From Isoetes taiwanensis (Eukaryota > Streptophyta > Lycopodiopsida > Isoetales > Isoetaceae), in the NCBI GenBank assembly GCA_021234155.1, contig JAJEKV010000186.1:389359-453358 (forward strand): 64,000 nucleotides of DNA, given 5' to 3'. Made by a program: the position numbers and the translations under genes. This document shows, piece by piece, positions 1-58,959 of the stretch (positions are counted from its first letter, which is position 1; the number at the start of each line of letters is the position of its first letter). Below the pieces are notes generated by a model that saw only the letters and a program-made list of their open reading frames with translations, ran no database searches and was not told the origin of the DNA.

Positions 1-13
1 TAGAAAGTAAATT

Positions 14-1903: not shown

Positions 1904-2192
1904 GAAGAATTGCTTTGCTAACTTAATTAAAGTACATTGTAACTCCTTTTAAATATTATCATGAAGTCCATTAAATGTATTCCTATATACTAATTAATGT
2001 ATTACTATGATGTTGACTTATAAATGAAATTTCCATGTGATTTCTTTTGGTACCTAACAACAATTTAATTGTAAGCAAAAATGACTATTGTCTAAACTTA
2101 ACATTATGTATTGATGATCGACCCTTGCAGCAAGGAACTCAAGTGCAGGATCTCAGGACCAGCACCGACCACGCAATTGGGTTCCAAGGAAT

Positions 2193-3364
2193 TTGTTTGG
2201 CAGAGAACAAGAAGACTTTGAGCAGGATATGTCACCAGAGGCAATTAACGCAAGGCTGGTGCAGATGAGGAACCAGATGCAAAACCTGATCAACTGGGCG
2301 GCACCTCTGATGAATGAGCAGGAAGATGGTCCTCCACCTCCACCTTGCCTTCCAGGCGGTGACGAGGTCCCTCAGCAGGAAGGGGAGGGCAACCAAGGGC
2401 ACGTCAGGGATAGGAGAAGGAAGAGGAGAACCAAGAGCCCATCGCCATCTAGCTCTAGCTCATCAGATAGTTCTTCCAGTGAGGACAGCTCTAGCTCCGA
2501 CAGTCAGTCTGGCACACCTAAGGCAAGGAAAAGGGCAAGAAAGACAGGATGACTACCGAAAAAGGTGGATAGTGCTATGAGCAATGTGTGGAAGACAAGG
2601 AAGGCGGGCGGTTCTCGGGGAAAGACGGTCGGGCATGGAAGCTGAAGCATGGCTTGATGAAATGGAAGAATTTGGTAACTCTTACGGTATGAAAGACAAA
2701 GATATAGGGAAAGTTGCTACAGCTAACCTTATTGGACGGCAAGGATCGGTGGAAGGGATATGCTAAGTCTAACAATGTCAAGAAGAACAATTGCAGATTT
2801 AAGACTTTTAGCAAGGCTTTCCGTAAGCACTATGTGCCAAGGTCCCATACTAGTAGACGAGATCAGCGGTTTTACAAGTTGAATCAGGGTAGCTTATCGA
2901 GTGGCTAAGTATAGAAGAATTCATGAGGCTTAGGCTTCATGTCCGGGAGTATCGAGAAAGGCAGGCAGTGGATACTTATATTGAGGGGTTGAACGGCAAT
3001 ATCAAGAGGCTTGTGAGAGCAATCAACCCAATTCGATGCAGAGGCCCGAAGATAAAGCTATAAGTTTGGAAGAGGCACGGCAACTCCAGCAGAGAAGCGA
3101 TCAACCGGGGGTAAGAGTTGAGGCGTGATCGGGGACAATACGGGGTAAGCAATCAGCTGGCTACACCATGGGGAGTCGGCGGCAAGGTAAGGGTCAGAAC
3201 AAAGCTTTTGGGGACCCGTAAGCCCTGAGAATGCATCGAGGGGCAGTGCTCTTAAAAGCGTCTCCTAGGCGATGTAGAAGGAAAAGAGACAGGAATGCAT
3301 TGAGAAAAAGTTATGCTTCAGGTGCTTCCAGCCAGGGCACCGAACACATGATTGTCCATTCGTC
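2193..3364 (+). pseudogene. gag: Ty3/gypsy gag (copy 1, frameshifted)
   Basis: Capsid/nucleocapsid precursor that packages the element RNA. The frame around 2193 carries a Met/Asn/Gln-rich start, a proline run, a basic stretch and a long Ser/Asp/Glu tract (2440-2510) of SR-like composition. The retrotransposon gag core follows in shifted frames (2640-3000; blocks such as AWLDEMEEFGNSYG and FRKHYVP). A zinc knuckle [14 protein letters not shown] at about 3316-3357 runs in frame into the pol start. A possible acceptor (cccttgcag at 2122-2130) suggests gag may be spliced, so the true start is uncertain. Several frameshifts are present. Confidence 0.8.
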
Positions 3365-5230
3365 ATGCAGTCAGCCTTGGCAGAGCTTATGGATTGGGAT
3401 TCCCCAACAGAAGCAGATGAAGACGACGACCAGCAGGAGGCCCAGGACTTCATAGATGGTGAGTGCCACATATGTGCAAACATTGAGTCAGATGATATTG
3501 AGAGTCAGTCGACTGTCATCGCGGCTGATGGGATCATAGATAATAAGCCATATGTAGTCCTCATAGATACAGGTAGCTCTCACAATTTTGCATCTCTTAG
3601 ATTGGCTGCCTTAATGAAGAACAAGGTATTGAAGTCTAAGCCAAGGCCAGTAGCTATGGCAAACGGCGCCATTCGGCACACTAAGGGGAGGAGGATCATC
3701 TTTGATATAGACCTTAGTGGGGCTAAGTGGCCGATGGGAGCGGAAGTCATGGATATCGGAAGGTATGATCTTATTGTGGGAATGGAATTCTTGAAGCCAG
3801 CGAAAGCAGTAATTGATTGTGACCGGAACGAAGTCACCATGACGGCACCGGACGGCAACAAGTTGATAGTCAAAGGTAAGAAGCTAGATTCTCCCATGCA
3901 GTGTATTTCTTTGAAGCAGCTAAGGAAGAGTATAGAAAGGAATAAGGTGGACTACATCCTGAGGATGGAATCAGTTGAGCCAAGCAAGCAAGATGGAAGT
4001 GACCCAAAGGGAAATCAGCTGCCCAAGCAAATAGCGAGGCTTATTTCAGAGTTCAAGGATGTATTTCCGGATGAAATCCGGCAGCTGCCACCTTATAGGG
4101 GTGTGGAATGTGAGATAACATTGGCTCCAGATGCGAAGCCTACCAGTAAGGCACCATATAGAATGAGCACCCCAGAATTGATTGAGCTTAAGAAGCAGCT
4201 TCAGGAATTGCTCGAGCTTGGATTCATAAGGGCAAGTGTGTCTCCTTTCGGAGCACCTATACTCTTCGTAAAGAAGAAAGACGGGAGGCTAAGAATGTGC
4301 ATAGACTATCGTCAGCTTAATAAGCAAACGATAAAGAACAAATATGCATTGCCAAGGGCAGATGACCTAATGGATCAGTTACAAGGAGCAAAGGTATTCT
4401 CTAAAATTGATTTGAGATCAGGATACCATCAGATAAGGATAAAAGAAGAGGATATCCACAAGACTGCTTTCAGAACGCGGTATGGTCATTTTGAGTTTAC
4501 AGTAATGCCCTTTGGATTGTCAAACGCTCCTGCAACATTTATGCGCCTTATGAATGACATCTTCAGAAACTTCTTGGATGAGTTTGTCATTGTCTTCTTC
4601 GACGACATTCTAGTCTACAGCAAGTCCCTTGAAGAGCATTGTCAGCATCTCAGGAAAGTGTTGGAAAAGTTGAGACGCCATCGGTTGTATGGAAAGCTCT
4701 CTAAGTGCCACTTTGCAACAGGCCGAGTGGAGTATTTGGGGCATGTAGTAACATCCGAGGGAATCTCCACAGATCCATCGAAGATTGAGGCAATAGTTGA
4801 TTGGCCTGCTCCAAGGAATGTGGCAGAAGTAAGAAGCTTTCTCGGGTTGGCGGGATATTACAGAAAGTTCGTGAAGGACTTTGCTAAGTGGGCGTCCCCT
4901 TTGTCGGACCTCACTAAGGCCAAGAAGATTAAGGATTGGACTAGCCATTGGTTAGAGAAAGTCCAAGCTTCCTTCGAGAAGCTTAAAGAGGCCTTGACAA
5001 TAGCACCAGTCCTTGTTCTTCCGGACCCGAGTAAAGATAAGTTGGTAGCAACAGATGCGAGCAAGATAGCAACAGGGGCAGTCTTGATGCAAGAAGGAAG
5101 GGTAGTCGCCTACGACTCAAAGAAGATGAACGACGCCGAGCAACGCTACCCAACCCATGATCAGGAGCTGCTAGCCATTGAGGATATAGAGGCATTATTT
5201 GCTGGGAAGGAAGTTTCAGTTAGATACTGA
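3365..5230 (+). CDS. pol: Ty3/gypsy pol, first part: protease, reverse transcriptase, RNase H start
   Basis: Makes cDNA from the element RNA. With residue 1 at 3365: an aspartic protease with DTGSS (Asp at residue 68), a reverse transcriptase whose active-site block is FFDDILVY (Asp413, Asp414), and the start of RNase H with DAS at residue 564. The frame is open upstream through the gag knuckle, so gag and pol probably form one polyprotein and the ATG is only the first Met in this frame. The reading ends early at 5230 because, compared with copy 2, 11 bp are missing at the 5180/5181 junction inside RNase H. The remainder continues in another frame from 5199. Confidence 0.92.
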
Positions 5231-6926
5231 TCACCAGAGCCTTCAGTATCTCTTTACCCAGCCACTCCTCAACTTAAAGCAAAGGAGGTGGATGGAATTC
5301 CTGGAGGAGTATGATTTTGATATTATATATAAGCCTGGCAAGCTTAATGTTGTAGCAGATGCCCTCTCCAGGAGACCATTTCAGACAAGGACGCATTGTA
5401 ATGCGATTTCCACTCTTTCGAGTCAGTTTGGCAAGAAGATTGAGGAGTCCTTGCCAACAGATGTGGACTTCAAGGAGGTATGGGAAAGTCTTTCCAAGGA
5501 AGCCAGAACAGATAAGGAGCGGGAAGCCTTCAAGCATTATAAGAAGGAAGGCAACCTGTTGTATCACAAGCATAAGTTGTGTGTACCCGAATCATCAGGG
5601 GTAAGGAAGTTAATTCTTCACGACACACATAACAGCCCAATAGCAGGGCATGCTGGCTTCATGAAGACCTATTTCAAGATTCGAAGTAGCTACTTCTGGC
5701 CAGGTATGAAGAGGCAGATAGCTGCATATATTCGAGATTGCCAGTTATGTCAGCAGACCAAAGCGGAGCAACTTCGGATTCCAGGTGCTCTTGAGCCATT
5801 GGGGGTGCCAAATGCAAAGTGGGAGGTCATAAGCATGGATTTCATCACAGGTCCCCCTAGAACTCTTCGAGGCAAGGATGCATTGATGGTTGTCGTAGAC
5901 AAGTTATCTAAGATGGCACATTTTGTGCCTTGCAAGACTACGGACACCGCATTAGATACTGCCAAGTTATTTGTAAGGGAGATTTTTAGACTCCATGGCA
6001 TGCCTCGGGAGATAATATCTGATAGAGATTCTAAGTTTATGAGTGCCTTTTGGCAGGATCTCTTTAGCACCATTCAGACGAAGCTCTCCATGAGCACGGC
6101 ATATCATCCCCAAACAGATGGCCAGACGGAAAGGACGAATCGGATCATTGAAGACATGCTTCGAAGTTATGTGTGGAACAAGCAGTCCAAGTGGGATGAG
6201 TACATCCACTTGGTGGAATTCGCCTACAACAGCGCCAAGCAGGAGTCTTCTCAGATGTCTCCTTTCATGGTAAATTACGGGTACCAGTGCTTAACCCCGG
6301 ATACCTGGCACAATCCTGTGTCCAAGGTAGAAGTATCCCAGCAGATGTTAGGGGATATGCAGCAGTTAGTGGAGGAGGTAAGGGGTTATTTATTGGCAGC
6401 AAGAAGTCGGCAGAAGAGTGTAGCCGACAAGCACAGGACCGTAAGGGAGTTCAAGGTAGGCGATAGCGTTTGGTTGAAGATCAAGGTGAAGCAAGCCAAG
6501 CTGCGGATTGGGAGTTGTAAGAAGCTTGCCCCTAGGTGGGCTGGTCCGTTCAAGATTTTGGAAAGAGTGGGCTCTCAAGCCTACAAGTTGGATCTTCCAG
6601 CCCATCTCAAGGTTCACAAAGTCTTCCACGTAAGTTTATTAAAAAGGCACAATCCTAACCCTGAGGAGGTTTTGGATACTCCAACCTTGTTGGAAATGAC
6701 GGAGGAGCAAGTAGAAATAGTGCCTGAGTTACTTCTTGATAAGTCATTCAAGAAGACTAGGAGGTCTCAGTTCCTCCAATATTTGGTTAAGTGGAAGCAC
6801 TTACCCATGGAAGATGCGACATGGGTATTGAAGCAAGATTTGGAGAAGCAATACCCAGAATTTATGAAGGAGTTTGATGGGCGAGTCGTCTCCGACTTGG
6901 TCGACCACGACTTGCCAGGTGGTTAG
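5199..6926 (+). CDS. pol: Ty3/gypsy pol, second part: RNase H end, integrase, chromodomain-like tail
   Basis: With residue 1 at 5199: the end of RNase H, then an HHCC zinc domain ([16 protein letters not shown]), and the integrase core with catalytic Asp214, Asp275 and Glu311 (exact 35-residue spacing between the last two). The C-terminal part contains the GPF/GPY-like module ([19 protein letters not shown]) and a chromodomain-like segment with LVKWKHLP and DATWV around residues 520-545. Chromodomains of this class bind methylated histone H3 tails and steer integration into heterochromatin. The stop is at 6924-6926. It is separated from the first pol part only by the 11 bp loss, so the element is probably not autonomous as sequenced. 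Confidence 0.92.
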
Positions 6927-7007
6927 CTAGTATGTTGTTAGTTAGCCTTAAGCCTGGCGCATGCATTCTAGTTAGTAGGGTGCATGTGCCAGAACCTTGC
7001 ACCGTGT

Positions 7008-7325
7008 GGGCGATGATGGGATACGCCTTTAGGGCATTCTCTAGGCCACACGCACCAAGAGGTGCGCATGACCATTAGGGTCATGTGAGTGAGGAATGAG
7101 GCATGGTGGGCGATGATGGGACATCGATCGGATGATCTCTATGCCACGATGCGGGGTACGCACACCTGACCGTAGGAGGGTCATGGTGAAGGGTAAAGTG
7201 ATCATGCGCGATGATGGGATCGTGAGACGTTCCCTAGCTGAAACCCTCGGGGCATGAGGCACTGGGGTGTACTCGATCCGGGGGATCGTGTACAAGGTAG
7301 CACTCGATCATGGGCAATGATGGGA
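7008..7325 (+). repeat. Four ~100 bp tandem units after pol (copy 1)
   Basis: A 14-base core GGGCGATGATGGGA and close variants occur at 7008, 7108, 7206 and 7312, a spacing of about 100 bases. The regions between carry related words around CGATC and GGGTCATG. Copy 2 keeps the same four cores in inverse order at about 45570, 45674, 45775 and 45876 (read as TCCCATCAT..C). Non-coding and conserved between copies; a structured RNA or protein-binding array is possible. Confidence 0.7.
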
Positions 7326-7746
7326 GCATCTTAAATGATCCCTAAGCTCAAATCTGAAAGGGCCATGATCTTGGGCAAGGTAGGACAACCTTGAGCCAGT
7401 GATGGTTCGGCTCAAGGAGGTAAGGGGGGTGGTCCCCTAAAACCACAAATTATTAACTAAACTAACGTAATGTGCTCCTTTTGCAGGCAAGTAGAAGGAG
7501 GACCTCAACGAGGAGCGCGTTACGAGAAGATAGGGGGAGCCATAATTTAGATTATGAACCCTACTAACTCTTATAATAGTATTTTGAATTATTATAAGAA
7601 ATAACTGTGTTAAGGCTATATAATTTTGTATAAGTACAAATATAGCCTAAATTTTGACCTTTAATTAATAAAACTTGATTGCTAAAGTAAACTAAAGGTT
7701 ATGGTATGTTGTTGTTGTTTTTGCAGGCATAAGGTAGGTTCGTCAC
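7326..7746. other. Non-coding stretch between tandem units and polypurine tract
   Basis: No open frame with recognisable content. It is AT-rich from 7440 on, with two acceptor-like sites (ttttgcag at 7478-7485 and 7719-7726) each following a pyrimidine-rich run. Copy 2 keeps both in the same places, so this may be a spliced 3' untranslated region of the element. Confidence 0.4.
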
Positions 7747-7790
7747 CTTAGCGCAATGCTGAGGACAGCATTGTCCTAAGGGGGGGAGAA
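7747..7790 (+). other. Hairpin and polypurine tract before 3' LTR (copy 1)
   Basis: CTTAGCGCAATGCTG (7747-7761) pairs with CAGCATTGTCCTAAG (7766-7780), a near-perfect 15 bp stem with a 4-base loop. The polypurine tract aagggggggagaa (7778-7790) abuts the LTR and is the expected primer for plus-strand cDNA synthesis. The same arrangement is found at the 3' LTR of copy 2 (45108-45120 on the complementary strand). Confidence 0.85.
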
Positions 7791-9435
7791 TGTGACGGTC
7801 CAGGGGAATATACGCCATAAATACGTATATTCCTGGATCCGTCACTATACAAGTCTAGCTTCATAGCCTTGTATACCATAGATTGTGGCACTAGGGGGCA
7901 TGGCCAAGTTATTCCCATAACTTAGCCAACCATAGGTTTAGACCATTATCCACGTGGCCTTAACCTATTGGGCACCCGCCACACAGGACTCACCCGATTG
8001 GTGCCACGTGGCATCCTAGGTGGACCTAACTTATATAGGCCTAAACCCTAACCCTAGGCCTTTTTCCAGCCCTAGCACCCAGAGACTCACCTACTCGTTC
8101 GAAACCCCGTTTCGAACATCGTTTGTTGTGGCATAGGCTGGTGCAGCAGCCCCAGCAGGGTAGACTCGTTCTTGGAGTAGGAGCAGCATCTTGTGAGTCG
8201 AAGACCATGGAGGCGCACGGATCTGGAGGGAGAGCATCAGGAGCAGGTATGTAGAGTAGTAGTCGTGATAGCTTATCTGGAATTAGCATTCTAGATATGC
8301 TAGTATCTTGTATCTAGAGTAGAGCCATCCTAGAGCCCATATTCAACATCTTGAACCCTAATCAAGGAACCCTAACTATTAGTTAGATTTGTATGATTAG
8401 GTTAAGATGTTCTTCTTATGATTATTCTCAGGATGTGATGATTATGGATGATGGTTGATCATGTTTGCTCCTCTTGTATTGGGAAGGGGGTAGAGACCTA
8501 GAGCCATATGTAGTATGCTCCTAGATTAGATCCCTTAGTTCCTATTAGATGCGGCTGTGCATAGGAGCCCACCGTGCTATTGAGGCTATGATCACGACTC
8601 AGCACCATACAACGGGGCTAGAGGGAAAGTGGAGGGAGGATCCCCGCCGAGTGGGGGGCGGGGGGGATCCCATAGTGGGCTAGGCTTATGGCCTGGGTCA
8701 CTGTGTGGGCCGAGCATGGGTCCCACACCTCCCGGGGCAATGGTGTGCCGCCTGCCGAGAGCTGCAAGTGTCAGCTTGGCTCTCGTTTTGGGGGGTTCAG
8801 TCGGGTACGAATCGTGTGTCGCCACGATTCTCTAGCCGCCCACAGCACCTCTAGATCCTGGGAAGGGGAGATGCAACCCTTCCTGCCTCATCGGACCAGG
8901 AGATGCAACACGGAGTAGTCCCGATGGGTGATGCCATGGGATTGCGTGATCAGGAAGGCTAGAGTCCTGTCGGAGAGCCTGATTTAGCCCATCCGCAAAG
9001 TATGCATGGGGAGGGGCAGATGGAGTGGTCAACCCTAGCCATTGTTCTATGCCAGCCCTCGCCATTGCCATGACTCGGTCTGCTCTATCTTGAGGCCTAG
9101 CCGGTCAGTCATCCTCCTTATGAGTCTGAGCCGGGGTAGGAGCTCTCATGTTTCACGGTTTGTGCTTATCATCTTTGTACTGGCATATGCGTGATGCACT
9201 ACCCTTCGAGGTAGTATTTGTATATGTTTGATGCTAGTTCTGACGTGTTATCGCTTCCGCTGTTATAGAAGCCCATAGGGGAAGGGCGCGCAAGACACCT
9301 TCGTGTTCCCTCCCCGCACTAAGGGTCACCTCAGAGTGCGGGGTAGACGAAGGGCCCGTGCGGTTGCTGAGCCGGATGGGGGATTTCTTGCCGAGTGTAC
9401 GGCTGGATGCCGTATGTTTAGCAGGGAGCGTCACA
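7791..9435 (+). repeat. 3' LTR of gypsy copy 1
   Basis: Starts TGTGACGGTCC and ends GGGAGCGTCACA, so it has the TG..CA ends with a 7 bp terminal inverted repeat TGTGACG/CGTCACA. Length is 1645 bp, the same as the 5' LTR of copy 2. It contains G-boxes, a TATA box and a telobox in the promoter part. Open frames inside it are on both strands and are not supported as genes. Confidence 0.95.
7950..8051 (+). promoter_or_regulatory. LTR promoter: two G-boxes, TATA box, telobox
   Basis: CCACGTGG at 7950-7957 and a perfect 12 bp palindrome TGCCACGTGGCA at 8002-8013 are G-box/ABRE cores, bound in plants by bZIP and bHLH factors. TATATAGG follows at 8032-8039, then AAACCCTAA (telobox) at 8043-8051 inside a short telomere-like run. 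The same set is in both LTRs of copy 2 (44865-44950 and 56335-56430, inverse). The spacing fits a Pol II core promoter; stress- or ABA-linked expression is inference. Confidence 0.65.
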
Positions 9436-43476: not shown

Positions 43477-45107
43477 TGTGACGCTCCCTGCTAAACATAC
43501 GGCGCCTAGCCGTACACTCGGCAGGAAATCCCCCATCCGGCTCAACAACCGCACGGGCCCTTCGTCTACCCCGCACTCTGAGGTGACCCTTAGTGCGGGG
43601 AGGGAACACGAAGGTGTCTTGCGCGCCCTTCCCCTATGGGCTCCTATAACAGCGGAAGCGATAACACGTCAGAACTAGCATCAAATATACAAATACTACC
43701 TCGAAGGGTAGCGCATCACACATCTATCAATGCAAAGATGATAATCACGAACCATAAAACATGAGAGCTCCTACCCCGGCTCAGACTCATAAGGAGGATG
43801 ACTGACGGGCTAGGCCTCAAGATAGAGCAGACCGAGTCATGGCAATGGCGAGGGCTGGCATAGAACAATGGCTAGGGTTGACCACTCCATCCGCCCCTCC
43901 TGTGCATACTTTGCAGATGGGCTAAATCAGGCTCGGCGGGACTCTAGCCTTCCGGATCACGCAATCCCATGGCATCACCCATCGGGACTACTCAGTTGCA
44001 TCTCCCGGTCCGATGAGGCGGGAAGGGTTGCATCTCCCCTTCCGGGATCTAGAGGTGTTGTGGGCGGCTAGAGAATCGTGGCGACACCGCGATTACTGCC
44101 CGTGAACCCCCAAAGCGAGAGCCAAAGGCGACACTTGCAGCTCTCGAGAGGAGAGGCGACACCATTGCCCGGGGAGGTGTCGGACCCATGCTCGGCCCAC
44201 GCGAAGTGACCGACCATAAGCCTAGCCCACTATGGGATCCCCAAGCCCCCACTCGGCGGGGATCCTCCCTCCACTTTCCCTCTAGCCCGTTGTATGGTGC
44301 TGAGTGGTATCATAGCCTCAATAGCACTGGTGGGCTCCTATGCCTGAGCCGCATCTAATAGGAACTAAGGGATCTACTCTAGGAGCATACTACATATGGC
44401 TCTAGGTCTCTACCCCCTTCCCAATACAAGAGGAGCAAACATGATCAACCATCATCACATAATCATCACATCATGAGAATAATCATAAGAAGAACATCTT
44501 AACCTAATCATACAAATCTAACTAATAGTTAGGGTTCATTGATTAGGGTTCAAGATGTTGAATACGAGTTCTAGGATGGCTCTACTCTAGATACAAGATA
44601 CTAGCATATACGGAATGCTAATTCGGATAAGCTATCACAACTACTATCCTACATACCTGCTCTGAAGCTCTCCCTCCAGATCAGGTGTGCCTCCATGGTC
44701 TTGACTCACGTGATGCTTTGCTCTTGCTCCAAACGAGTCTACCCTTTGGACTCTTTGCAGTCTATGCTCTGACAAGCGGCGTTCAAAGCGGGGTTTCGAA
44801 CGAGTAGGTGAGTCTCTGGGTGTTAGGGCTGGAAAGAGGCCTAGGGTTAGGGTTTAGGCCTATATAAGTTAGGTCCACCTAGGATGCCACGTGGCACCAA
44901 TTGGGTGAGTCCTGTGTGGCGGGTGCCCAATAGGTTAAGGCCACGTGGATAATGGTCTAAACCTATGGGTGGCTAAGTTATGAGAATAACTTGGCCATGC
45001 CCCCTAGTGCCACAACCTATGGTATACAAGGCTATGAAGCTAGACTTGTATAGTGACGGATCCAGGAATATACGTATTTATGGCGTATATTCCCCTGGAC
45101 CGTCACA
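43477..45107 (-). repeat. 3' LTR of gypsy copy 2
   Basis: 1631 bp with TGTGACG/CGTCACA ends, 14 bp shorter than the 5' LTR. Differences from the other two LTRs are mostly small clustered indels, e.g. 44735-44790. The TATA, G-box and telobox of copy 1 are retained in inverse order (44865-44950). Confidence 0.95.
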
Positions 45108-45973
45108 TTCTCCCCCCCTTAGGACAATGCTGTCCTCAGCATTGCGCTAAGGTGACGAACCTACCTTATGCCTGCAAAACAACATAAGACAACTTTTAGT
45201 TTACTTTAGCAATCAAGTTTTATTAATTTAAAGGTCAAAATTTAGGCTATATTTGTACTTATACAAAATTATATAGCCTTAACACAGTTATTTGTTATAA
45301 TAATTCAAAATACTATTATAAGAGTTATTAGGGTTCATAATCTAAATTATGGCTCCCCCTATCTTCTAAATGCTTGGCGGCTCCTCGATGAGGTCCTCCT
45401 TCTACTTGCCTGCAAAGGAGCACATTACGTTAGTTTAGTTAATAATTTGTGGTTTTAGGGGACCACCCCCCTTACCTCCTTGAGCCGAACTACTGGCTCA
45501 AGGTTGTCCTACTACCTTGCCCAAGATCATGGCCCTTTCGGATTTGAGCTTAGGGATCATTTAAGATGCTCCCATCATTGCCCATGATCGAGTGCTACCT
45601 TGTACCACGATCCCCGGATCGAGTACACCCGATTGCCTCATGCCCCAGGGTTTCAGCTAGGGAGCGTCTCACGATCCCATCATCGCGCATGATCACTTTA
45701 CCCTTCACCATGACCCTCCTACGGTCGGCCAATGTGCGTACCCGCGCATCGTGGCATAGAGATCATCCGTCGATGTCCCATCATCGCCCACCATGCCTCT
45801 TTCCTCACTCACATGACCCTAATGGTCATGCGCACCTCTTGGTGCGTGTGGCCTAGAGAATGCCCTAAAGGCGTATCCCATCATCGCCCACACGATCCAA
45901 GGTTCTGGCACATGCACCCTACTAACTAGAATGCATGCGCCAGGCTTAAGGCTAACTAACAACATACTAGCTA
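45108..45973 (-). other. Polypurine tract and 3' non-coding region of gypsy copy 2
   Basis: The polypurine tract (aagggggggagaa read on minus) is at 45108-45120. The same hairpin and AT-rich stretch as copy 1 follow. The four TCCCATCAT..C cores of the ~100 bp tandem units lie at about 45570, 45674, 45775 and 45876. Confidence 0.8.
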
Positions 45974-48900
45974 ACCACGGCAAAGTCGGGTCGACCAAGT
46001 CGGAGGCGACTTCGCCCATCAAACTCCTTCATAAATTACGGGTATTGCTTCTCCAAATCTTGCTTCAATACCCATGTCGCATCTTCCACGGGTAAGTGCT
46101 TCCACTTAACCAAATATTGGAGGCGAGACCTCCTAGTCTTCTTGAATGACTTATCAAGAAGTAACTCAGGCACTATTTCTACTTGCTCCTCCGTCATTTC
46201 CAACAAGGTTGGAGTATCCAAAACCTCCTCAGGGTTAGGATTGTGCCTTTTTAATAAACTTACGTGGAAGACTTTGTGAACCTTGAGATGGGCTGGAAGA
46301 TCCAACTTGTAGGCTTGAGAGCCCACTCTTTCCAAAATCTTGAACGGACCAGCCCACCTAGGGGCAAGCTTCTTACAACTCCCAATCCGCAGCTTGGCTT
46401 GCTTCACCTTGATCTTCAACCAAACGCTATCGCCTACCTTGAACTCCCTTACGGTCCTCGGTGCTTGTCGGCTACACTCTTACTTGCGACTTCTTGCTGC
46501 CAATAAATAACCCCTTACTTCTTCCACTAGGCTGCTGCATATCCCCTAACATCTGGCTGGGATACTTCTACCTTGGACACGAGGATTGTGCCAAGTATCC
46601 GGGGAGTTAAGCAGCAGGTACCGTAATTTACCATGAAAGGAGACATCGAGAAGACTCCCGCTAATTGTGGCGAATTCCACCAAGTGGATGTACTCATCCC
46701 ACTTGGACTGCTTATTCCACACATAACCCGAAGCATGTCTTCAATGATCCGATTCGTCCTTTCCGGTCGCCGGCCATCTGTTTGGGGATGATATGCCGTG
46801 CTCATGGAGAGCTTAAATGCGAATGGTCTTTGAAGAGATCACGCCAAAAGGCACTCATAAACTTAGAATCTCTATCGGATATTATCTCGAGGCATGCCAT
46901 GGAGTCTAAAAATCTCCCTTACAAATAACCCAGCGATTATCTAATGCGGTGTCAAGTAGTCTTGCAAGGCACAAAATGTGCCATCTTAGATAACTTGTCT
47001 CGACAACCATCAATGCATCATTGCCTCGAAGAGTTCTAGGGAGACCCGTGATGAAATCCATGCTTATGACCTCCCACTTTGCATTTGGCACCCCAATGGC
47101 TCTAAAGCACACGGAATCCGAAGTTGTTCGCCTTTGTCTCTGTGACATAAGCGGCAATCTCGAATATATGCAGCTATCGCCTCTTCATACGGCGGAAGTA
47201 GCTACTTGAATCTTGAAATAGGTCTTCATGAAGCCCGGCATGCCACGCTATTGGGCTGTTATGTGTGTCATGAAGAATTAACTTCCTTACCCCTGAAGAT
47301 TCGGGCACACACAACTTATGCTTGTGATACAACAGGTTGCCTTCCTTCTTATAATGCTTGAAGGCTTCCCGCTCCTTATCTGTTCTGGCTTCCTTGGAAA
47401 GACTTTCCCATACCTCCTTGAAGTCCACACTCCTCAATCTTCTTGCCAAACTCACTCGAAAGAGTGGAAATCGCATTACAATGCGTCCTTGTCTGAAATG
47501 GTCTCCTAGAGAGGGCATCTGCCCAGGCTTATATACAATGTCAAAATCATACTCCTCAAGGAATTCCATCCACCTCCTTTGCCTTAAGTTGAGGAGTGGC
47601 TGGGTGAAGAGATACTGAAGGCTCTGGTGATCAGTATCCAACTGAAACTTCCTTCCCAGCAAATAATGCCTCCATATCCTTAATGCCCTGACAATGGCTA
47701 GCAACTCCTGATCATGGGTTGGGTAGCGTTGCTCGGCGTCGTTCATCTTCTTCGAGTCGTAGGCGACTACCCTTCCTTCTTGCATCAAGACTGCTCCCGT
47801 TGCTATTTTGCTTGCATCCGTTGCTACCAACTTATCTTTACCGGATCCGGAGAACAAGCAAGCGATCTTTGTTGTTAAGGCCTCCTTAAGCTCGAAGGAA
47901 GCTTGGACTTTCTCTAACCAATGGCTAGTCCAATCCTTAATCTTCTTGGCCTTAGTGAGGTCCAGACAAAGGGGCGCCCACTTAGCAAAGTCCTTCACGA
48001 ACTTCTGTAATATCCCGCCAACCCAGAAAGCTTCTTACTTACGCTACATTCCTTGGAGCTGGCCAATCAACTATTGCCTCAATCTTAGATGGATCTGTGG
48101 AGATTCCCTCGGATGTTACTCACGTGCCCCAAATACTCCCTTTCGGCTGTTGCAAAGTGGCACTTAGAGAGCTTCCCATACAACCGATGGCGTCTCAACT
48201 TTTCCAACACTTTCCCGAGATCGCGACAATGCTCTTCAAGGGACTTCTTTGTAGACTAGAATGTCGTCGAAGAAGACAATGACAAACTCATCCAAGAAGT
48301 CTCACGAAGATGTCGTTCATAAAGGCGCATAAATGTTGCAGGGCGTTTGACAATCAAAGGGCATTATTGTAAACTCAAAATGACCATACCGCGTTAAAGC
48401 GGTCTTGTGGATATCCTCTTCTTTTATCCTTATCGATGGTATCACGATCTCAAATCAATTTTAGAGAATACCTTTGCTCCTTGTAACCGATCCATTAGGT
48501 CATCGCCCTTGGCAATGCATATTTGTTCTTTATCGTTTGCTTATTAAGGCGGCGATAGTCTATGCACATTCTTAGGCTCCGTCTTTCTTCTTTACGAAGA
48601 GTATAGGTGCTCCAAAAAGGAGACACACTTGCCCTTATGAATCAAGCTCGAGCAATTCACGAAGCTGCTTCTTAAGCTCAATCAATTGCAGGGTGCTCAT
48701 TCTATATGGTGCCTTCTTGGTAGGCGGCGTGCGGAGCCAATGTGATCTCACATTCCACACCCCTATAAGGTGGCGGTGCTTTGGATTTCATCAGGAAATA
48801 CATCCTTGAACTCACGAAATAAGCCTTGCTATGCTTGGGCAGCTGATTTCCCTTTGGGTCACTTCCATCTTGCTTGCTTGGCTCAACTGATTCCATCCTC

Positions 48901-49515
48901 AGGATGTAGTCCACCTTATTCCTTTCTATGCTCTTCCTTAGCTGCTTCAAAGAAATACTTTGCATGGGAGAACCTAGCTTCTTACCTTTGACTATCAACT
49001 TGCTGCCGTCCGTCGGTGCGTCATGGTGACCGTTCGGTCACAATCAATTCTTTGCTTTTTTTTGGCTTCAAGAATTCCATTCCCACAATAAAATCATACC
49101 TTCCGATATCCATGACTTCCGCTCCCCCGGCCCACTTAGCCCCACTAAGGTCTATATCAAAGATGATCCTCCTCCCCTTAGTGTCGAATGGCGCCGTTTG
49201 CCATAGCTCTTGGCCTTGGCGTAGACTTCAATACCTTGTTCTTCATTAAGGCAGCCAATCTAGGAGATGCAAAATTGTGAGAGCTACCTGTATCTATGAG
49301 GACTACATATGGCTTATTATTTATGATCCCATCAGCCGCGATGGCGGTCGGGACTGACTCTCAATATCATCGACTCAATGTTTGCACATATGTGGCACTC
49401 ACCATCTATGAAGTCATGGGCCTCCCTGCTTTGGTCGCCGTCTTCATCCGCTTACGTTGGGGAATCCCAATCCATAAGCTCGCCAAGGCTATCGACCGCA
49501 TGACTGAATGGACAA
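45974..49515 (-). pseudogene. pol: Gypsy pol, copy 2 (protease, RT, RNase H, integrase, chromodomain-like)
   Basis: Same domain order as copy 1 in many shifted frames. The protease region is at about 49290-48960. Reverse transcriptase lies around 48720-48000, its FFDD block near 48270 being frameshifted. The longest clean piece is 47998-47174, covering the end of RT through RNase H ([12 protein letters not shown]) into the integrase zinc domain; it keeps the LLAIVRALRIWRHYLLG stretch that copy 1 lost. Integrase follows at 47157-46527, then the chromodomain-like end at 46419-46036 ([15 protein letters not shown]). Not translatable as one protein as sequenced. Confidence 0.9.
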
Positions 49516-50650
49516 TCATGTGTTGATTGCCCTGGCCGGAAGCACTGAAGCATAACTTTTCTCAATGCATTCTGTCTCTTTTCCTTCGGGGCGGTGTCTG
49601 GGAGGCGGCTTGAGAGCACGCCCCTTGATGCATGCGTAACTTACGGTCCCCAAAAGCTTTGTTCTGACCCTTACCTTGCTGCTGACTCCCCGATGGTGTA
49701 GCTGCTGATTGCTTACCTTGGTATTGTCCACGATCTTGCCACTGAACTCTTACCCCTAAAGGTTGGTTGCTTCTCTGCTTTGGAGTTCTTTGGTGCCTCT
49801 TCCAAACTTATAGCTTTATCTTCGCCTCTGCAATCTGACCTTGGGTTGATTGCTCTAACAAGCCTCTTGATATTCTTTGTTCAACCCCTCAATATAGGTG
49901 TCCCTTTGCTTTTGCCTTTTCGATACTCAGGGACATGAAGTCTAAGTCTCATGAATTCTTCGGTATACTTAGCCAGCGATAAGCTACCACGATTCAACCT
50001 GTAAAAGCTTTGGATCACGTCTACTAGTATGGGACCTTGGCACATAGTGCTTACGGAAAGCCTTGCTAAAAGTCTTAAATCTGCAATTGTTCCTCTTCAG
50101 CTTGTTAGACTTAGCATATCCCTTCCACCAGATCCTTGCCGGTCCAATAAGGTTAGCTGTAGCAACTTTCCCTATATCCTTGTCTTTCATACCGTAAGAG
50201 TTACCAAATTCTTCCATTTCATCAAGCCATCGTCGACTTCCATCCACGATCTGTCTTTCCCAAAGCGGCCCGACTTCCTTGTCTTCCACACATTGCTCAT
50301 AGCACTATCCACCTTTTTCTGGTAATCATCTGTTTTTCTTGCCCTTTTCCTTGCCTTAGGTGTGCCAGACTCACTGTCGGAACTAGAGCTGTCCTCACTG
50401 GAAGAACTATCTGATGTGCTGGAGCTAGATGATGATGGACTCCTGGTTCTCCTTCTTCGTCTCTTGTCCCTGACGTTGCCGTGGTTGCCCTCCCCTTCCT
50501 CGCCGAGGGAACCGTCACCCACGGAGGACAAGGTGGAGGTGGAGGACCATCTTCTGATGCATTCATGAGAGGTGTCGCCCGAGTTGATGAGGTGTTGCAT
50601 CACGGTTCCTCATCGCACCAACCTTGCATTGACGCCTCACGGTGACATAT
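49516..50650 (-). pseudogene. gag: Gypsy gag, copy 2
   Basis: 50603-50187 carries the Ser/Asp-rich tract (SDSSSSEDSSSSDSESGTP) and the WLDEMEEFGNSYGMKDKDIG core. 50289-49984 continues with IGPARIWWKGYAKSNKLK, FRKHYVPRSHTSRRD; here the capsid core is in better frame than in copy 1. The zinc knuckle near 49520-49560 is frameshifted. Confidence 0.82.
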
Positions 50651-50975
50651 CTGCTCAAAATCTTCTTGTTCTCACGCCAAACAAGTTCCTTGGAACCCAA
50701 TTCGTGGTGGTGCTGGTCACGAGATCCCGCACTTGAGTTCCTTCAGCGCAAAGGGTCGATCATCAATACATAATGTTAAGTTTAGACAATAGTCATTTTT
50801 GCTTACAATTAAATTGTTGTTAGGTACCAAAAGAAATCATATGAAAACTTCATTTACAAGTCAAAATCATAGTAATACATTAATTAGTATATAGGAATAC
50901 ATTTAATGGACTTCATGATAATACTTAAAAGGAGTTACAATGTACTTTAATTAAGTTAGCAAAGCAATTCTTCCA

Positions 50976-52487
50976 TCAATGATGTCGCTTGAAGAAGTTC
51001 TTGATTTTCTTGAATCGTGAGCCCTTGGTCATATTCTGTAGGATTCTGGCCGCCGATCCTCCCTCCAATGCTCTTGCCACTTGTGGTGCCGGGAGTTCTG
51101 GTGCAGTTGCCGCCACTACTGACAAGTGTGCATCTCTGAGGTGGCCCCTTGCGAAGTCGAGGGCGTGAAGGGCTACTGATCTTTTGAAGAGTATCACATG
51201 GTCCATCCCAAAATCTATCCTGGCATGATGTCCAAACCCTGAGAGTGCTATGAGGGGCCCGGAGTTCTTCACCCCTTGGGCTGAATTCCTTGTGGAAGAC
51301 TATCATCTGACCTTGACTAAGAGCTAGGAAGATAGTACACGAGTGATTTGCCCCTGTCTTTGCCCCGTGCCTCCCGTACCCTTCCTCTGGGCGCCTGCGC
51401 CCGAACACATCTAATGCGATCGGATCTTCGTGATCCCTCCACATAATCGTTGCGTTCTCCAAGTTGATCTTTGCTAGATGATTAGCGATACTCTGGGCGC
51501 GACCGGTAAATTTGGAGCTTGGGCATCTTCGGTTTGTACAACTGCTTTGGATTTCTGAAATTCTTCTTACGGGATGATGGGTTCCTGGCTTGCTGAAACA
51601 TGTACCTAATCTGTTGATATGCCCGGATGTCGACATGGTTTCCCCGCATAGGAGTGTAATTTCGGCTACCTTAGTGGAATCTCTTGGTAGGAGTAGTCGA
51701 TGAAGTCAACGCCCGCTCTTGTGCTATTAGGCTTAGAAGCTGCGTCGATCCACGAGGGCCCTCCTCTTGACAATAGGGAAGGTTGAGGATGTGATTGGCG
51801 AATATGTACTCCCTCGCCGTCGATAATCAGCGGGGTAAGGGCCGTAATACCCACTTGGTGGCTCAAAGTCTCGCCTTAGAACTTCTGTTGTCGAGCTATC
51901 GCCTCTCCATCCTTCTTGCCTCCCTCATCTCCCAACTTGGGTTCTCTTCCTCCTCCTCTTCGTAGTCATGTTCGATCTGCAACATAGGTGTTTCCGATGT
52001 GGAGCCGTAGTGTTCGTATGCTGAGGTCTCGATCTCGTGGATGTTTATCTGTGCTGCCCGAGTGTCGAGAGGTGCCAAATCAAAGGGTTGAATTGACGGC
52101 TCCCTGGTTGGTTAAGCGCCCTATCTTTGCATGAACAATGCTAAGGCTGCTTGGCACGAGAGATACCTATGCCTATGATGCTTACGGGTCATGTAGTGCG
52201 GCATGTTTACGGTTCTATCCCACGACTTGTTCTTGCCCTGGATCCCCACCTATGGCTTGAGCAAGAGAATCTAGAGAAACCCATTTCCCTCCCTAGGTGG
52301 CAAGCTAACTTCCGAGGGGCAGAATTTTGCGATCATATTGACACATGATGTCGGTGTAATAGGGGGTTACGGTCAAGGTGGCATGAAGATCAAAGAGATG
52401 ATCGAAGACATGAAAGGCTTGCTCGGCAGAGGAGTTCACGGATATGATTAGAGTCATTGTACCATCTAACAAAGCTTGATAAGCCAT
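50976..52487 (-). pseudogene. ORF-B, extra open region before gag (copy 2)
   Basis: Starts MAYQALLDGTMTLIISVNS at 52487 and stays open for 60 codons. After frame changes the downstream half is open at 51636-50956 (INLENATIMWRDHEDPIALD; SQGQMIVFHKEFSPRGEE) and at 51272-50976, which ends SRFKKIKNFFKRHH. Family unknown. TATA box at 52595-52604. See copy 1 entry; conservation of both ends of the region in two copies is the main support. Confidence 0.5.
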
Positions 52488-52594
52488 TGAGCGTAGAGAT
52501 GGCTATGAAAAATGGTCTGAAATTGAGCAAAGGGCTAGAAAATCGCCACAGGAGCTAAGAGCAGTTCTGATAGGGAGAAAATGACAAATGAGGG

Positions 52595-52604
52595 CCCTTT
52601 TATA
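52595..52604 (-). promoter_or_regulatory. Internal TATA box before ORF-B (copy 2)
   Basis: TATAAAAGGG on the minus strand, 108 bp before the ATG at 52487; conserved with 266-274 in copy 1. Confidence 0.5.
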
Positions 52605-52861
52605 GACTAGGGGTGCCTCGGGTTCCGTGCACAAAGGTTCTTGATGGGGAAGACTCCAAATCTATGGCCCTGGGTGTCCAAATGAACTACCATGAAGTGC
52701 AATTCTAGGCAAAGCAAAGCAAGAAACACTACATGAGAGTTTGTTGGGTCAAAATTGGTCAATCTAGGCAAGATTGGGCGAAATCGGGTGGCGTCGCGAG
52801 AATTGGCTCTGCGTCGAGGACGCAGGGTGGTTTTTCGCGACACGACCCGGTTTCGGGTCAA

Positions 52862-53268
52862 TTAACTTTCTACGAGGGGTTTTAGGAAAATTAAACATCC
52901 TAACATGACTTTCCAGCATGATTCTACCCTAACTAGCAACTTTTCTTACTTAAATTGGACATTTATCAGCATCAAAATGCCAAAATCGGGTGGCGTGGTC
53001 ATGAGAAGTAGCCCTCGGCCGATGAGACCCAATTTTCGCGACAGCGACCGGTTTAAGCCAATTTTTTTTTTTTTTTTTGGACTAATTAAGCTAGGGTTTC
53101 TAACTAATTAATTTTTTTCCTTCAACAATGCAATTTTAATGGTCAAAATTAAAGTGAAATTTGAGCTATTTAGACATAATTTCATACAAGAATTAAGGTC
53201 AATTTACAACAAAATTTTATATTTATAAGAGACTTAATAATTACATTACTTTGAACAAAAATGCATCC
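52862..53268. other. Spacer between ORF-A and ORF-B
   Basis: Non-coding. Contains a second, degenerate version (52981-53060) of the aaatcgggtggcgt..tcgcgac segment found at 52783-52862, and a T run at 53065-53080. The part next to ORF-A (53130-53268) is AT-rich, as expected of a 3' untranslated region. Confidence 0.45.
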
Positions 53269-54370
53269 TCAAGGGTATTTCTTGCGGATGCGGCGTAAGT
53301 GTATATCCTTGGGCATCAAGGTCACCCTCTTGGCGTGGATCGCAGCGAGAGGGTTCCCTTCCTCAAACAAGCTGGGTGAGCTTCGGCCTCGGCTACTTGC
53401 AACACCAGGAGTTGTGGCGGCGTCACTCTGTAGTGGGTGGCCGAACTCCGCCATCACCTCCTCGCATGAGCGCTCAAAGGTGCCTTCCTAATCGGGGAGA
53501 TTAGTGCCTTTGTTGAAAGTGTCTAATCTCGGGAAGACGAGATGCGGGGAATTAGGTCCATGGTGGACCTTCTTCGGCTTCTCCGGTGGTGGCGGAGGCG
53601 GCTTGGGCTGGTTCTTCGCTGGACGCCCCCCCTCCACGTACCGGTCGACATTCTGCCGGCAATACCAGTCATTATACCTCGTCCCGCAGGCGGAGGTATA
53701 CGAATGCGCCTTGAGGCGTCGAAGAAGAGACGATCCTCCTTCAGGGCGAAGGATCGCTCGCCCGCCTTCTGCTTCTTGACCACCTTAGGTGGCTTAGGCC
53801 ACTTTGGATAAGGTGGTCTGGCGTCGGGGTTTGAAGGTTCCCCGGCGCGCTCGTCCTCCTCGTCTTCCTCCTCTTCAACCTCCTCTTCCACCTCCTCTTC
53901 CACTTCCTCATTGCGGTTCCTCGATAGCGGCCGGTCCGTGAGGCCCGTCGTTTCTTCTCTTCGTTCTCTGCTCCTGCCGCCTCAGCTCCTCCTCCCGCTC
54001 CCTCTTCCTCCTCGCGGCCCTCTCCTCCGGCCACTCAGTGACCTTCTCCTTGCCTTTTTCTTTGGCCAGAAGGCCAAAGCCGTCCCTAGCTGCTGGACTG
54101 CTCTTCCTCTGCTCTTCCGCCGATTAATGCGTGTCCCGAAATGGCGAGTCTCGCCGGTTCTTTCGCGTTCTGCCGGCCCGAAGGGCTCACCGGCATCGTG
54201 ATATGTCACTGTCGGCTAGCTGCTGGCTGCTTGGGGGAAGCTCCTCTTCCCCCCTTCTTAGGTGAGGAGGTGCTCGGGGATCTTCTTCACGTGTCGCCCC
54301 GGTTGCTAAGTCGCCATCGAGAGTGTCGGCTCGCCACGGCTTCCTGGTCATGCTGCTTGGTTCTTGCCAT
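53269..54370 (-). pseudogene. ORF-A: retrotransposon protein with H3 N-terminus and histone H3-like C-terminal domain
   Basis: The ATG at 54370 begins MARTKQ, identical to the first six residues of histone H3. A basic Ser/Pro-rich tail (RRSPSTSSPKKGG) follows. Then comes a long charged segment (about 54070-53830: EERAARRKREREEELRRQEQ, then a Glu-rich run), a segment with RYNDWYCRQNVDRYVEGGRP (about 53680-53620), and a proline run. The end resembles the H3 core: KPKKVHHGP (H3 has KPHRYRPG), NLP then IRKAPFER (H3 LLIRKLPFQR) near 53492, EEVMAEFG, LQSDA, LFEEGN, AAIHAKRVTLMPKDIHL and RRIRKK, stop at 53269-53271. The conserved helix 3/C-terminus is nearly intact; helix 2 is poorly conserved. Frame changes occur at about 54290, 54120, 53700 and 53495. 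It lies on the element's coding strand between primer-binding site and ORF-B. Confidence 0.7.
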
Positions 54371-54458
54371 ACTTAACGGTTTAGAAAACGGGTGGGGATA
54401 GGCTGATCAAGAGAAAGAAGGTGGAGGAAAGTTTGGAGGAAAAATGAGGTGTCAGGGA

Positions 54459-54467
54459 TATTTAAAA
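54459..54467 (-). promoter_or_regulatory. TATA-like box before ORF-A
   Basis: On the minus strand CCCTTTTAAATATCCC, a TTTAAATA-type TATA box about 90 bp before the ATG at 54370. With the ORF-B TATA box it suggests internal transcription units in the element. Confidence 0.4.
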
Positions 54468-54932
54468 GGGAGGGTCCCTGGGAATATTCTCCTACCATAA
54501 TTACCCCTATTTATTAGCCCCCCTTATTAATTACACCCTATTTAATAGTTATTTAATTATTAAAATATATATTAAACCTATATTAGTTGATATTATACTT
54601 ATATTTTCAAATTTTCTAATGGTTTGAAGTGCAATTTATGAATTTGCGCCATTTTTCACCTGGGTCTCCGATTGGTATGATTCTTCGACCCCTTTTTAGG
54701 TGAAATTTGATGCAGATGCATAATTTTCACTCCAAATTTACTAGAAGATGAGTTTGACTCACTCAACCCTTTGTCTAACACTTAACCTAAATCCTGACCC
54801 ACTACCTAGGAGAAAAATTTTTCCCCCATTTTCGCGGTTCAATGGTGGAAACGTTCATTTCACACCTCTATAGGCCTGTTAGACTACTTCATGGTTATGG
54901 TCAGTGCTAGTTCTTGGTCAACCAAGAACATC
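54468..54932. other. Leader between primer-binding site and ORF-A TATA box
   Basis: AT-rich, no gene seen. It contains the sequence immediately 3' of the primer-binding site, where packaging signals would be expected. Confidence 0.4.
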
Positions 54933-54944
54933 GCTCTGATACCA
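54933..54944 (-). promoter_or_regulatory. Primer-binding site of gypsy copy 2
   Basis: TGGTATCAGAGC on the minus strand, one base from the LTR end, complementary to initiator-Met tRNA; the same priming class as the copia element. Confidence 0.92.
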
Positions 54945-54945
54945 T

Positions 54946-56590
54946 TGTGACGCTCCCTGCTAAACATACGGCGCCTAGCCGCATTATTTTCGGCAGGAAA
55001 TCCCCATCCGGCTCAACAACCGCCGCGGGCCCGCCGTCTACCCCGCACTCTGAGGTGACCCTTAGTGCGGGGAGGGAACACGAAGGTGTCTTGCGCGCCC
55101 TTCCCCTATGGGCTCCTATAACAGCGGAAGCGATAACACGTCAGAACTAGCATCAAACATATACAAATACTACCTCGAAGGGTAGCGCATCACACATCTA
55201 TCAATGCAAAGATGATAATCACGAACCATAAAACATGAGAGCTCCTACCCGGCTCGGACTCATAAGGAGGATGGACGGCGGGCTAGGCCTCAAGATAGAG
55301 CAGCCAGGAGTCATGGCAATGGCGAGGGCTGGCATAGAACAATGGCTAGGGTTGACCACTCCATCCGCCCCTCACTGTGCATACTTTGCGGATGGGCTAA
55401 ATCGGGCTCGACGGGACTCTAGCCTTCCGGATCACGCAATCCCATGGCATCACCCATCGGGACTACTCGAGTTGCATCTCCCGGTCCGATGAGGCAGGAA
55501 GGGTTGCATCTCCCCTTCCGGGATCTAGAGGTGCGTAGTGGGCTAGAGAATCGTGGCGACACCGCATTGCGTACCAGTGAACCCCCAAAAGCGAGAGCCA
55601 AAGTGACACTTGCAGCTCTCGAGGAGGAGGCGACACCATTGCCCGGGGAGGTGCCGGACCCATGCTCGGCCCCTGCGAAGTGACCAGACCATAAGCCTAG
55701 CCCACTATGGGATCCCGAAGCCCCCCTTTCGGCGGGGATCCTCCCTCCACTTTCCCTCTAGCCCCGTTGTATGGTGCTGAGTCGTATCATAGCCTCAATA
55801 GCCTGGTGGGCTCCTATGCACAGGCCGCATCTAATAGGAACTAAGGGATCTACTCTAGGAGCATACTACATATGGCTCTAGGTCTCTACCCCCCTTCCCA
55901 ATACAAGAGGAGCAAACATGATCAACCATCATCACATAATCATCACATCATGAGAATAATCATAAGAAGAACATCTTAACCTAATCATACAAATCTAACT
56001 AATAGTTAGGGTTCATTGATTAGGGTTCAAGATGTTGAATACGGGTTCTAGGATGGCTCTACTCTAGATACAAGATACTAGCATATCTGGAATGCTAATT
56101 CCAGATAAGCTATCACAACTACTATCCTACATACCTGCTCCTGAAGCTCTCCCTCCAGATCCGTGTGCCTCCATGGTCTTCGACTCACGTGATGCTGCTC
56201 TTGCTCCAAGAACGAGTCTACCCTGCTGGGGCTGCTGCACCAGTCTATGCTACAGCAAACGACGTTCGAAACGGGGTTTCGAACGAGTAGGTGAGTCTCT
56301 GGGTGTTAGGGCTGGAAAGAGGCCTAGGGTTAGGGTTTAGGCCTATATAAGTTAGGTCCACCTAGGATGCCACGTGGCACCAATTGGGTGAGTCCTGTGT
56401 GGCGGGTGCCCAATAGGTTAAGGCCACGTGGATAATGGTCTAAACCTATGGGTGGCTAAGTTATGAGAATAACTTGGCCATGCCCCCTAGTGCCACAACC
56501 TATGGTATACAAGGCTATGAAGCTAGACTTGTATAGTGACGGATCCAGGAATATACGTATTTATGGCGTATATTCCCCTGGACCGTCACA
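54946..56590 (-). repeat. 5' LTR of gypsy copy 2
   Basis: 1645 bp, TGTGACG..CGTCACA ends, same length as the 3' LTR of copy 1. Its promoter part (56335-56430) has the same G-boxes, TATA box and telobox. Confidence 0.95.
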
Positions 56591-58943: not shown

Positions 58944-58959
58944 GATAAAAACAGTATAG

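What the first reader, a model, noticed from the sequence alone, without database searches (positions are those of the whole stretch)
53269..54370. A Ty3/gypsy retrotransposon carrying a histone H3-like gene (MARTKQ start, H3 fold at the C-terminus)
Seen: on the element's coding strand, between the primer-binding site and gag of a full-length copy, an ORF starts MARTKQ and ends with blocks that line up in order with the H3 core: KPKKVHH, IRKAPFER, LQSDA, LFEEGN, AIHAKRVT, MPKDI, RRIRKK. Known: ARTKQ is the H3 N-terminal epitope written and read at Lys4; IRK.PF and AIHAKRVT.MPKDI are the N-helix/helix 1 and helix 3/C-terminal blocks of H3 and CENH3. Inference: the element captured an H3 or CENH3-type gene and expanded its tail with a charged insert. 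The protein could join nucleosomes, mark element chromatin, or act as an H3K4 mimic. I know of no described retrotransposon family with this.
Basis: partly seen in the sequence, partly recalled or inferred. Interest (0 to 1): 0.93.

Follow-up and report, generated by a model that had tools for sequence, protein, structure and literature searches.

The report
Retrotransposon carrying its own histone H3
A large family of jumping genes, in a plant genome that fits a quillwort, carries as its first gene a long protein ending in a histone H3 that natural selection has preserved, so a mobile element seems to make its own chromatin protein.

Summary
The window's minus-strand Ty3/gypsy element (43477-56590, TSD AGTTT, inside a Ty1/copia gag gene) has a frameshift-ridden histone H3 ORF between primer-binding site and gag. 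Its genome (1,658,258,908 bases; fits Isoetes taiwanensis) holds many relatives. Of 24 close copies examined, 16 start exactly MARTKQTARK and 7 are fully open (365-375 aa). Four further lineages (A-D) carry 394-459 aa proteins: a distinct N-terminal domain plus an H3 core 84-88% identical to canonical H3. An exact LTR-PBS junction occurs 1249 times (control 0); 11 of the first 20 listed are followed by this gene. In the 13 best-kept window-family copies, changes shared between copies in the H3 core are 14 synonymous: 0 nonsynonymous. LTRs and gag-pol are more alike between lineages than the H3 module. It is a resident, selected gene of this retrotransposon clade. Most likely it pairs with host H4 as an element-encoded H3 variant; that function is inferred. 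The nearest precedent found is H3 in fungal hAT DNA transposons.

The parts
43477..56590 (-). Ty3/gypsy element (13,114 bp) bearing the H3-like gene, 5-bp TSD AGTTT (43472-43476 / 56591-56595), inserted in a copia gag gene
   Evidence: empty site reads through in frame
54946..56590 (-). 5' LTR (TGTGACG...CGTCACA)
   Evidence: LTR pair 94.5% identical over a 1656-column alignment
43477..45107 (-). 3' LTR
54933..54944 (-). primer-binding site TGGTATCAGAGC (initiator-tRNA-Met type, recalled)
   Evidence: an exact LTR-PBS junction of this type 1249 times in the genome
53269..54370 (-). H3-like gene, broken in this copy: H3 tip MARTKQ, charged insert, H3 histone-fold core at the C-terminus
53272..53580 (-). 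H3 blocks (KPKKVHH, IRKAP, LQSDA, LFEEGN, AIHAKRVT, MPKDI, RRIRKK) split over two frames
49371..50345 (-). gag-like region
   Evidence: tblastn with lineage-B gag-pol
46602..49360 (-). protease / RT / RNase H / integrase region, broken
   Evidence: tblastn with lineage-B gag-pol
46039..46479 (-). integrase C-terminus with chromodomain-like LQYLVKWKHLPVEDATW
   Evidence: Pfam Chromo on the other copy
1..9435 (+). second copy of the same family, 91% identical, cut by the window's left edge; its H3-like gene lies just outside (G000:C1003:387860-388970)
3278..6923 (+). RT, RNase H, integrase and chromodomain of the second copy in two long open frames
   Evidence: Pfam on 5190-6923 only
1450..1716 (+). 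remnant of the second extra ORF (ORF2) in the second copy
   Evidence: tblastn 1e-5

Best explanation
SHOWN: a clade of chromodomain Ty3/gypsy elements carries, between PBS and gag, a gene whose C-terminus is a histone H3. It exists in at least five sequence lineages, is still open in many copies, and was kept by purifying selection while the elements multiplied. INFERRED: the protein works as an element-encoded H3 variant. It pairs with host H4 and enters nucleosomes or H3-H4 assembly intermediates. The long, lineage-specific N-terminal part, held on the histone core, is the effector or address. Its tail lacks or rewrites residues the host uses for silencing (by reading: the stretches matching K27 and K36 in A-D, S10 in the window's sublineage), so element-made chromatin would be less readable to silencing or marked as the element's own. 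Identity of the gene about 0.97; H4 pairing about 0.6; the anti-silencing or self-marking purpose about 0.35.
For: Sequence: PF00125 at 3e-41 to 3e-43 in one protein each of lineages B, C and D; H3 chains at 4e-28 for the window family. Position: LTR end plus PBS upstream in 13 of 20 A-D loci, 596-779 bp before the start in the 10 where both are defined, 574-577 bp in 4 of 4 window-family loci with flanks; 11 of 20 junctions taken blind to H3 carry the gene. Selection: window family, shared single-step codon changes against a site ratio N/S of 3.5: 13 best-kept copies, 123 S: 29 N in the ORF and 14 S: 0 N in the core; 17 copies, 17 S: 2 N in the core; all 24, 24 S: 11 N in the core. Within-lineage dN/dS in A-D 0.03-0.04 in the core, 0.09-0.13 in the N-domain. 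Pairing, one copy per lineage: 9 of 9 residues of a recalled H3-H3' bundle list unchanged in all five; A-D keep 17-19 of 19 recalled DNA-contact and 21-22 of 23 recalled H4-facing residues. Insertion as a unit with TSD.
Against: No expression, protein or chromatin data could be reached. The window sublineage's core is diverged: 56 of 92 residues match H3; DNA-contact list 11 of 19, H4-facing list 15 of 23, in a right-anchored ungapped comparison. The A-D loci were picked from the best PF00125 hits, mostly with long open frames, which lowers their dN/dS; 10 of the 11 blind-sampled copies, dead ones included, give pooled pN/pS 0.42 in the core and 0.44 in the N-part. 9 of 20 blind junctions showed no H3, though one looks like a deletion and one holds a copia gag. 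No function of the N-domain is known.
Confidence: 0.6

Rival explanations
1. Histone mimic or decoy: the protein is never built into nucleosomes but titrates H3 chaperones or histone-modifying enzymes, in the window's sublineage with its exact ARTKQTARK tip.
For: 16 of 24 window-family copies keep MARTKQTARK exactly and the residue after K9 (S10) varies; tip dN 0.025 against dS 0.378 in 7 open copies.
Against: A-D lack that tip except the lysine at position 5 yet keep the core best; a pure tail decoy needs no histone fold.
Confidence: 0.2
2. Particle or pre-integration factor: the H3 core, with or without H4, condenses element cDNA in the particle or serves nuclear import or tethering of the integration complex.
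For: The gene lies before gag in the one element examined downstream for each of A-D and in the window element; highly charged linkers.
Against: Many charged proteins would do this; it does not explain 9 of 9 kept H3-H3' bundle residues or stronger constraint on the core than on the N-domain and linker.
Confidence: 0.15
3. Passenger: a captured gene fragment replicated without function.
For: Capture of host genes by LTR elements is described as frequent (PMC13317346, passages); 17 of 24 window-family copies are broken.
Against: 14 S: 0 N shared changes in the core of the best-kept copies, 24 S: 11 N even with all 24; open frames of 365-459 aa in five lineages.
Confidence: 0.03
4. The window's sublineage captured a CENH3-type gene separately from A-D, and acts at centromeres.
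For: Holding it with plant CENH3 gives a slightly better likelihood than the free tree (p-AU 0.60).
Against: The 60 PDB matches shown of 176 are H3s, none CENP-A; a single A-D plus window clade is not rejected either (p-AU 0.26); same place in a related backbone. The branch is long, so the tree is weak.
Confidence: 0.15

Closest known systems
H3L-bearing hAT DNA transposon of Pyrenophora tritici-repentis (PMC3538342, passages read)
   Same: A mobile element carries an H3-like gene in many copies (26), some open, with ESTs reported.
   Different: DNA transposon, fungus, very similar copies, H3L aligned with ordinary H3; no long fused N-terminal domain and no selection test in the passages seen.
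H3-like sequences in hAT elements of Pseudocercospora and relatives (PMC6710886, passages read)
   Same: Hundreds of TE-borne H3 sequences (784 in P. fijiensis), old capture.
   Different: Mostly truncated and inactivated by RIP; here open copies and purifying selection, and an LTR retrotransposon.
Additional ORFs in plant LTR retrotransposons (PMC7264820) and the AlkB ORF of orchid Ty3/gypsy elements (PMC9289625) (passages)
   Same: Extra gene fixed in LTR-element clades.
   Different: The word histone does not occur in the main text of the first, and twice in the second but not as a captured domain; here the gene is a histone and sits before gag.
Bracovirus histone H4 with extended tail, CpBV-H4 (PMC5423620, start of abstract in search listing)
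   Same: A parasitic element makes a core histone whose N-terminal tail, per that abstract, acts after joining host nucleosomes.
   Different: H4, insect virus; not a self-replicating retrotransposon gene.
Plant chromoviruses with group II chromodomain (PMC3350952, 12 passages)
   Same: Integrase chromodomain lacking the first and third cage aromatics.
   Different: No element-borne H3 gene in the passages shown.

Membership tests
Ty3/gypsy LTR retrotransposon (chromovirus branch) | LTRs, PBS, TSD | tested here: met
   window element
Ty3/gypsy LTR retrotransposon (chromovirus branch) | RT-RNase H before integrase, chromodomain at integrase C-terminus | tested here: met
   Pfam: RVT_1, RNase H and Chromo in lineage-D pieces, RNase H, rve and Chromo in the window's second copy; order by tblastn in the window
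Ty3/gypsy LTR retrotransposon (chromovirus branch) | RT groups with a named clade (Tekay, Galadriel, Reina, CRM, Tcn1) | not tested
   no reference RT set was at hand
Histone H3 | histone-fold core similar to H3 over its length | tested here: met
   one copy each: A-D 77-81 of 92, window family 56 of 92 residues identical
Histone H3 | canonical N-terminal tail ARTKQTARKS | tested here: inconclusive
   ARTKQTARK in 16 of 24 window-family copies, S10 variable; A-D keep only K at position 5
Histone H3 | pairs with H4 and enters nucleosomes | not testable with these tools
   recalled residue lists only
CENH3 / CENP-A | longer loop 1 and grouping with CENH3 | tested here: inconclusive
   by reading, loop lengths equal H3; tree tests reject nothing
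hAT-borne H3L (fungi) | TIR DNA transposon with hAT transposase | tested here: not met
   element has LTRs, RT and integrase

The most novel reading that the evidence does not exclude
A retrotransposon clade brings its own nucleosome subunit: an H3 whose fold is frozen by selection, whose silencing-relevant tail positions are rewritten, and whose N-terminal domain is a fast-diverging specificity module exchanged between element lineages by recombination, so that the element writes its own chromatin identity.
Probability: 0.3. Interest if true: 0.97.

Novelty: new variant of a known kind. Interest (0 to 1): 0.92.

Why it matters
Hosts silence retrotransposons through marks on histone H3. An element that has kept its own H3 gene under selection would be direct evidence that such elements fight, or exploit, silencing at the level of the nucleosome itself. 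It makes testable whether a mobile element can build or label its own chromatin, and gives a natural series of H3 cores with rewritten tails. Genome annotation is affected too: many H3-like open frames in this assembly are parts of elements.

Tried and rejected
Relatives in other species: the first two protein searches gave other H3-bearing proteins; no listed hit covered more than 27% of the query where a coverage is given, that is, the H3 part. The third was swamped by other H3-containing proteins (6229 matches of 7923 candidates, 120 listed), so it says nothing on whether the N-domain occurs elsewhere. A viral-contig scan with the N-domain found no relative. Long-insert H3 proteins from ENA (P0019, P0021, P0022, P0024-P0028; MARTKQTARK plus a long insert) look similar in build, but their host and context could not be reached.

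One capture or two: profile comparison of the window family with A-D aligns only the last ~105 residues, and the tree rejects neither one clade nor a CENH3 link. Unsettled. The recurring lysine at position 5 is a hint only, since my start patterns for A-D required it; six starts in the blind sample show it too.

Choice of window-family copies: of 40 scored matches, 28 reach the gene's first base; I used 24 of those 28 and none of the 12 others, 9 of which begin 4 to 50 bases in and 3 later. So the fact that all 24 begin MARTK is partly built in and is not used as evidence. The 14-copy set was hand-picked (L040 with 5 frameshift indels in, L048 and L056 with 5 out); one search repeats the count with 13, 14, 17 and 24 copies. 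Codons differing by more than one step were dropped there (62 in the 13-copy set, 334 with all 24).

Integrase reading the element's own tail: weakened, since the chromodomain lacks two of the three HP1 cage aromatics (HP1 sequence and cage recalled).

Structure prediction was not used: its stated list of accepted sources does not name loci from whole genomes.

Correction: an earlier count said 14 of 20 A-D loci show the PBS; the output shows 13 of 20.

Full report
What is in the window. The minus-strand element spans 43477-56590, with LTRs 94.5% identical, TG...CA ends, a PBS TGGTATCAGAGC one base after the 5' LTR and a 5-bp TSD AGTTT. Joining its flanks restores a continuous copia gag frame, so it moved as a unit, H3-like gene included. 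That copia element has its own LTRs at about 42278-42925 and 60358-61009. A second copy (1-9435, +, 91% identical) is cut by the window edge; its H3-like gene lies just outside. The H3-like gene at 54370-53269 is broken by frameshifts and stops, but its H3 similarity is beyond chance.

The genome. The window lies in a 1,658,258,908-base, 1110-sequence assembly. Isoetes taiwanensis is published as 1658.30 Mb in 204 scaffolds and 909 contigs (PMC8566536, passages). I take it to be that species: an inference from size and sequence count. 'Histone' does not occur in that paper's main text.

The family. A PF00125 search gave 8705 first-look candidates; the 150 scored all passed the cut-off. 15 of them score like canonical H3 (8 of these 15 were fetched and read as canonical), and the rest include open frames up to 494 aa. 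I fetched 20 of the 135 others, chosen mostly for long open frames: 20 of 20 hold a long frame ending in an H3 core. By start and N-domain they fall into lineages A (8 loci), B (7), C (3) and D (2); a start was assigned in 18 of 20. The window's own lineage (W) was sought with the window gene's DNA: 40 scored matches of 1483 candidates. I examined 24 of the 28 that reach the gene's first base (the window's own, three with flanks, 20 more): 16 begin MARTKQTARK exactly, 7 are open throughout. Among those 16 the residue after K9 is P, A, S, Y or F rather than a fixed S10.

Position, sampled without regard to H3. The exact junction AGGGAGCGTCACA-N-TGGTATCAGAGC occurs 1249 times, and 0 times in the reversed-pattern control. 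Of the first 20 listed, 11 have an H3-like gene downstream of the PBS (95% interval 0.32-0.77); one of these, L070, is weak (E=1.7e-8). Of the 9 without, one goes directly to gag and still shows what reads like the end of ORF2, one holds a copia gag, and 7 show nothing recognised (by reading and tblastn with ORF2 and gag-pol). Downstream come a second extra ORF (ORF2; seen in 16 of 20 A-D loci; a 465-aa example has no Pfam match) and gag-pol with RT, RNase H, integrase and chromodomain. Of the one element followed downstream per lineage, B and D have long pol frames, A is broken and C shows no RT match.

Selection. In W, single-step codon changes shared by two or more copies were counted against the commonest codon. 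In the 13 copies with at most 2 frameshift indels they are 123 synonymous to 29 nonsynonymous over the ORF and 14 to 0 in the H3 core; changes found once are 98 to 87 and 23 to 11. With 17 copies the shared core changes are 17 to 2, with all 24 they are 24 to 11 (a 14-copy count is). The site ratio N/S is 3.5. This is what selection during spread and neutral decay afterwards should leave. By pairwise dN/dS the core gives 0.27 over all 24 copies and 0.06 for the 7 open ones. In A-D, within-lineage dN/dS is 0.03-0.04 in the core, 0.09-0.13 in the N-domain and 0.12-0.25 in the linker. Those loci were chosen among the best H3 hits, a bias for the core and, through open frames, partly for the rest. 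In 10 of the 11 blind copies (L070 dropped as too weak), pooled pN and pS are 0.141 and 0.337 in the core and 0.217 and 0.495 in the N-part, with single-copy ratios from 0.04 to 0.69 in the core.

Anatomy. A-D: about 210 aa of a domain unknown to Pfam (B, C and D scanned), a charged linker, a rewritten H3 tail (for example ARHPATGGK where H3 has ARKSAPATGGVKK, by reading) and a core with 77-81 of 92 residues as in canonical H3, one copy each. W: the H3 tip, then about 270 aa of charged and proline-rich insert, then a core with 56 of 92. Nine of nine residues of a recalled H3-H3' bundle list are unchanged in one copy of each of the five lineages. A-D form one group in the H3-core tree (99/98); the place of W is unresolved.

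Module exchange. Between lineages, 5' stretches (LTR end, leader) are 83-90% and gag-pol stretches 78-86% identical in DNA, while the H3-like gene and ORF2 align only in parts, the H3 core at 73%. Synonymous differences agree: gag or RT pS 0.47-0.66 against 0.67-0.87 in the H3 core for the pairs B-C, B-D and C-D, while N-domains are 34-42% identical in protein and gag 96-97%. Recombination between element lineages explains this best; faster protein evolution of the module alone does not explain the synonymous excess. One element per lineage was compared, so this is a lead, not proof.

How it may work. The constant feature across lineages is the histone fold with its H3-H3' surface, in A-D also the H4-facing and DNA-contact residues, while the N-terminal part diverges fastest. 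That points to a protein that sits in H3's place with a variable effector attached, as an element-made H3 variant. Tail positions used in silencing are rewritten, which would suit escape from or relabelling of host chromatin; this step is inference. Decoy and particle-factor models remain.

What is known. Seven searches of the open-access library bore on this question (the other three were on the assembly, viral histones and chromodomains). I saw their listings and passages of nine papers, none in full; none of what I saw describes an LTR retrotransposon with a histone gene. H3-bearing hAT elements in fungi are described (PMC3538342, PMC6710886), as are viral histones (PMC9145170, where 'retrotransposon' does not occur). 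Subscription papers and preprints were not covered.

Noticed in passing
P0019, P0021, P0022, P0024-P0028: A separate multi-copy family of 365-424 aa proteins, MARTKQTARK + long insert + H3 core, from ENA contigs; by reading, P0027 seems to share the insert. Possibly another mobile-element H3; host unknown.
   Followed up: partly
16 of loci L009-L028, about 0.25 kb downstream of the H3 stop: ORF2, a second extra ORF of ~450 aa between the H3-like gene and gag, seen in all four A-D lineages; no Pfam match for the one example scanned; aligns only in parts between lineages.
   Followed up: partly
L058: Element whose gag follows the PBS directly and which keeps what reads like the last residues of ORF2: looks like an internal deletion that removed the H3-like gene.
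   Followed up: partly
window 9597-13229 (+): Endonuclease/reverse-transcriptase frames of a LINE-like element just past the second gypsy copy (by reading).
   Followed up: no
window 42278-61009: Ty1/copia element with ~94% identical LTRs, interrupted by the H3-bearing element.
   Followed up: partly
window 30111-30391: 87-bp tandem repeat, 3.3 copies.
   Followed up: no
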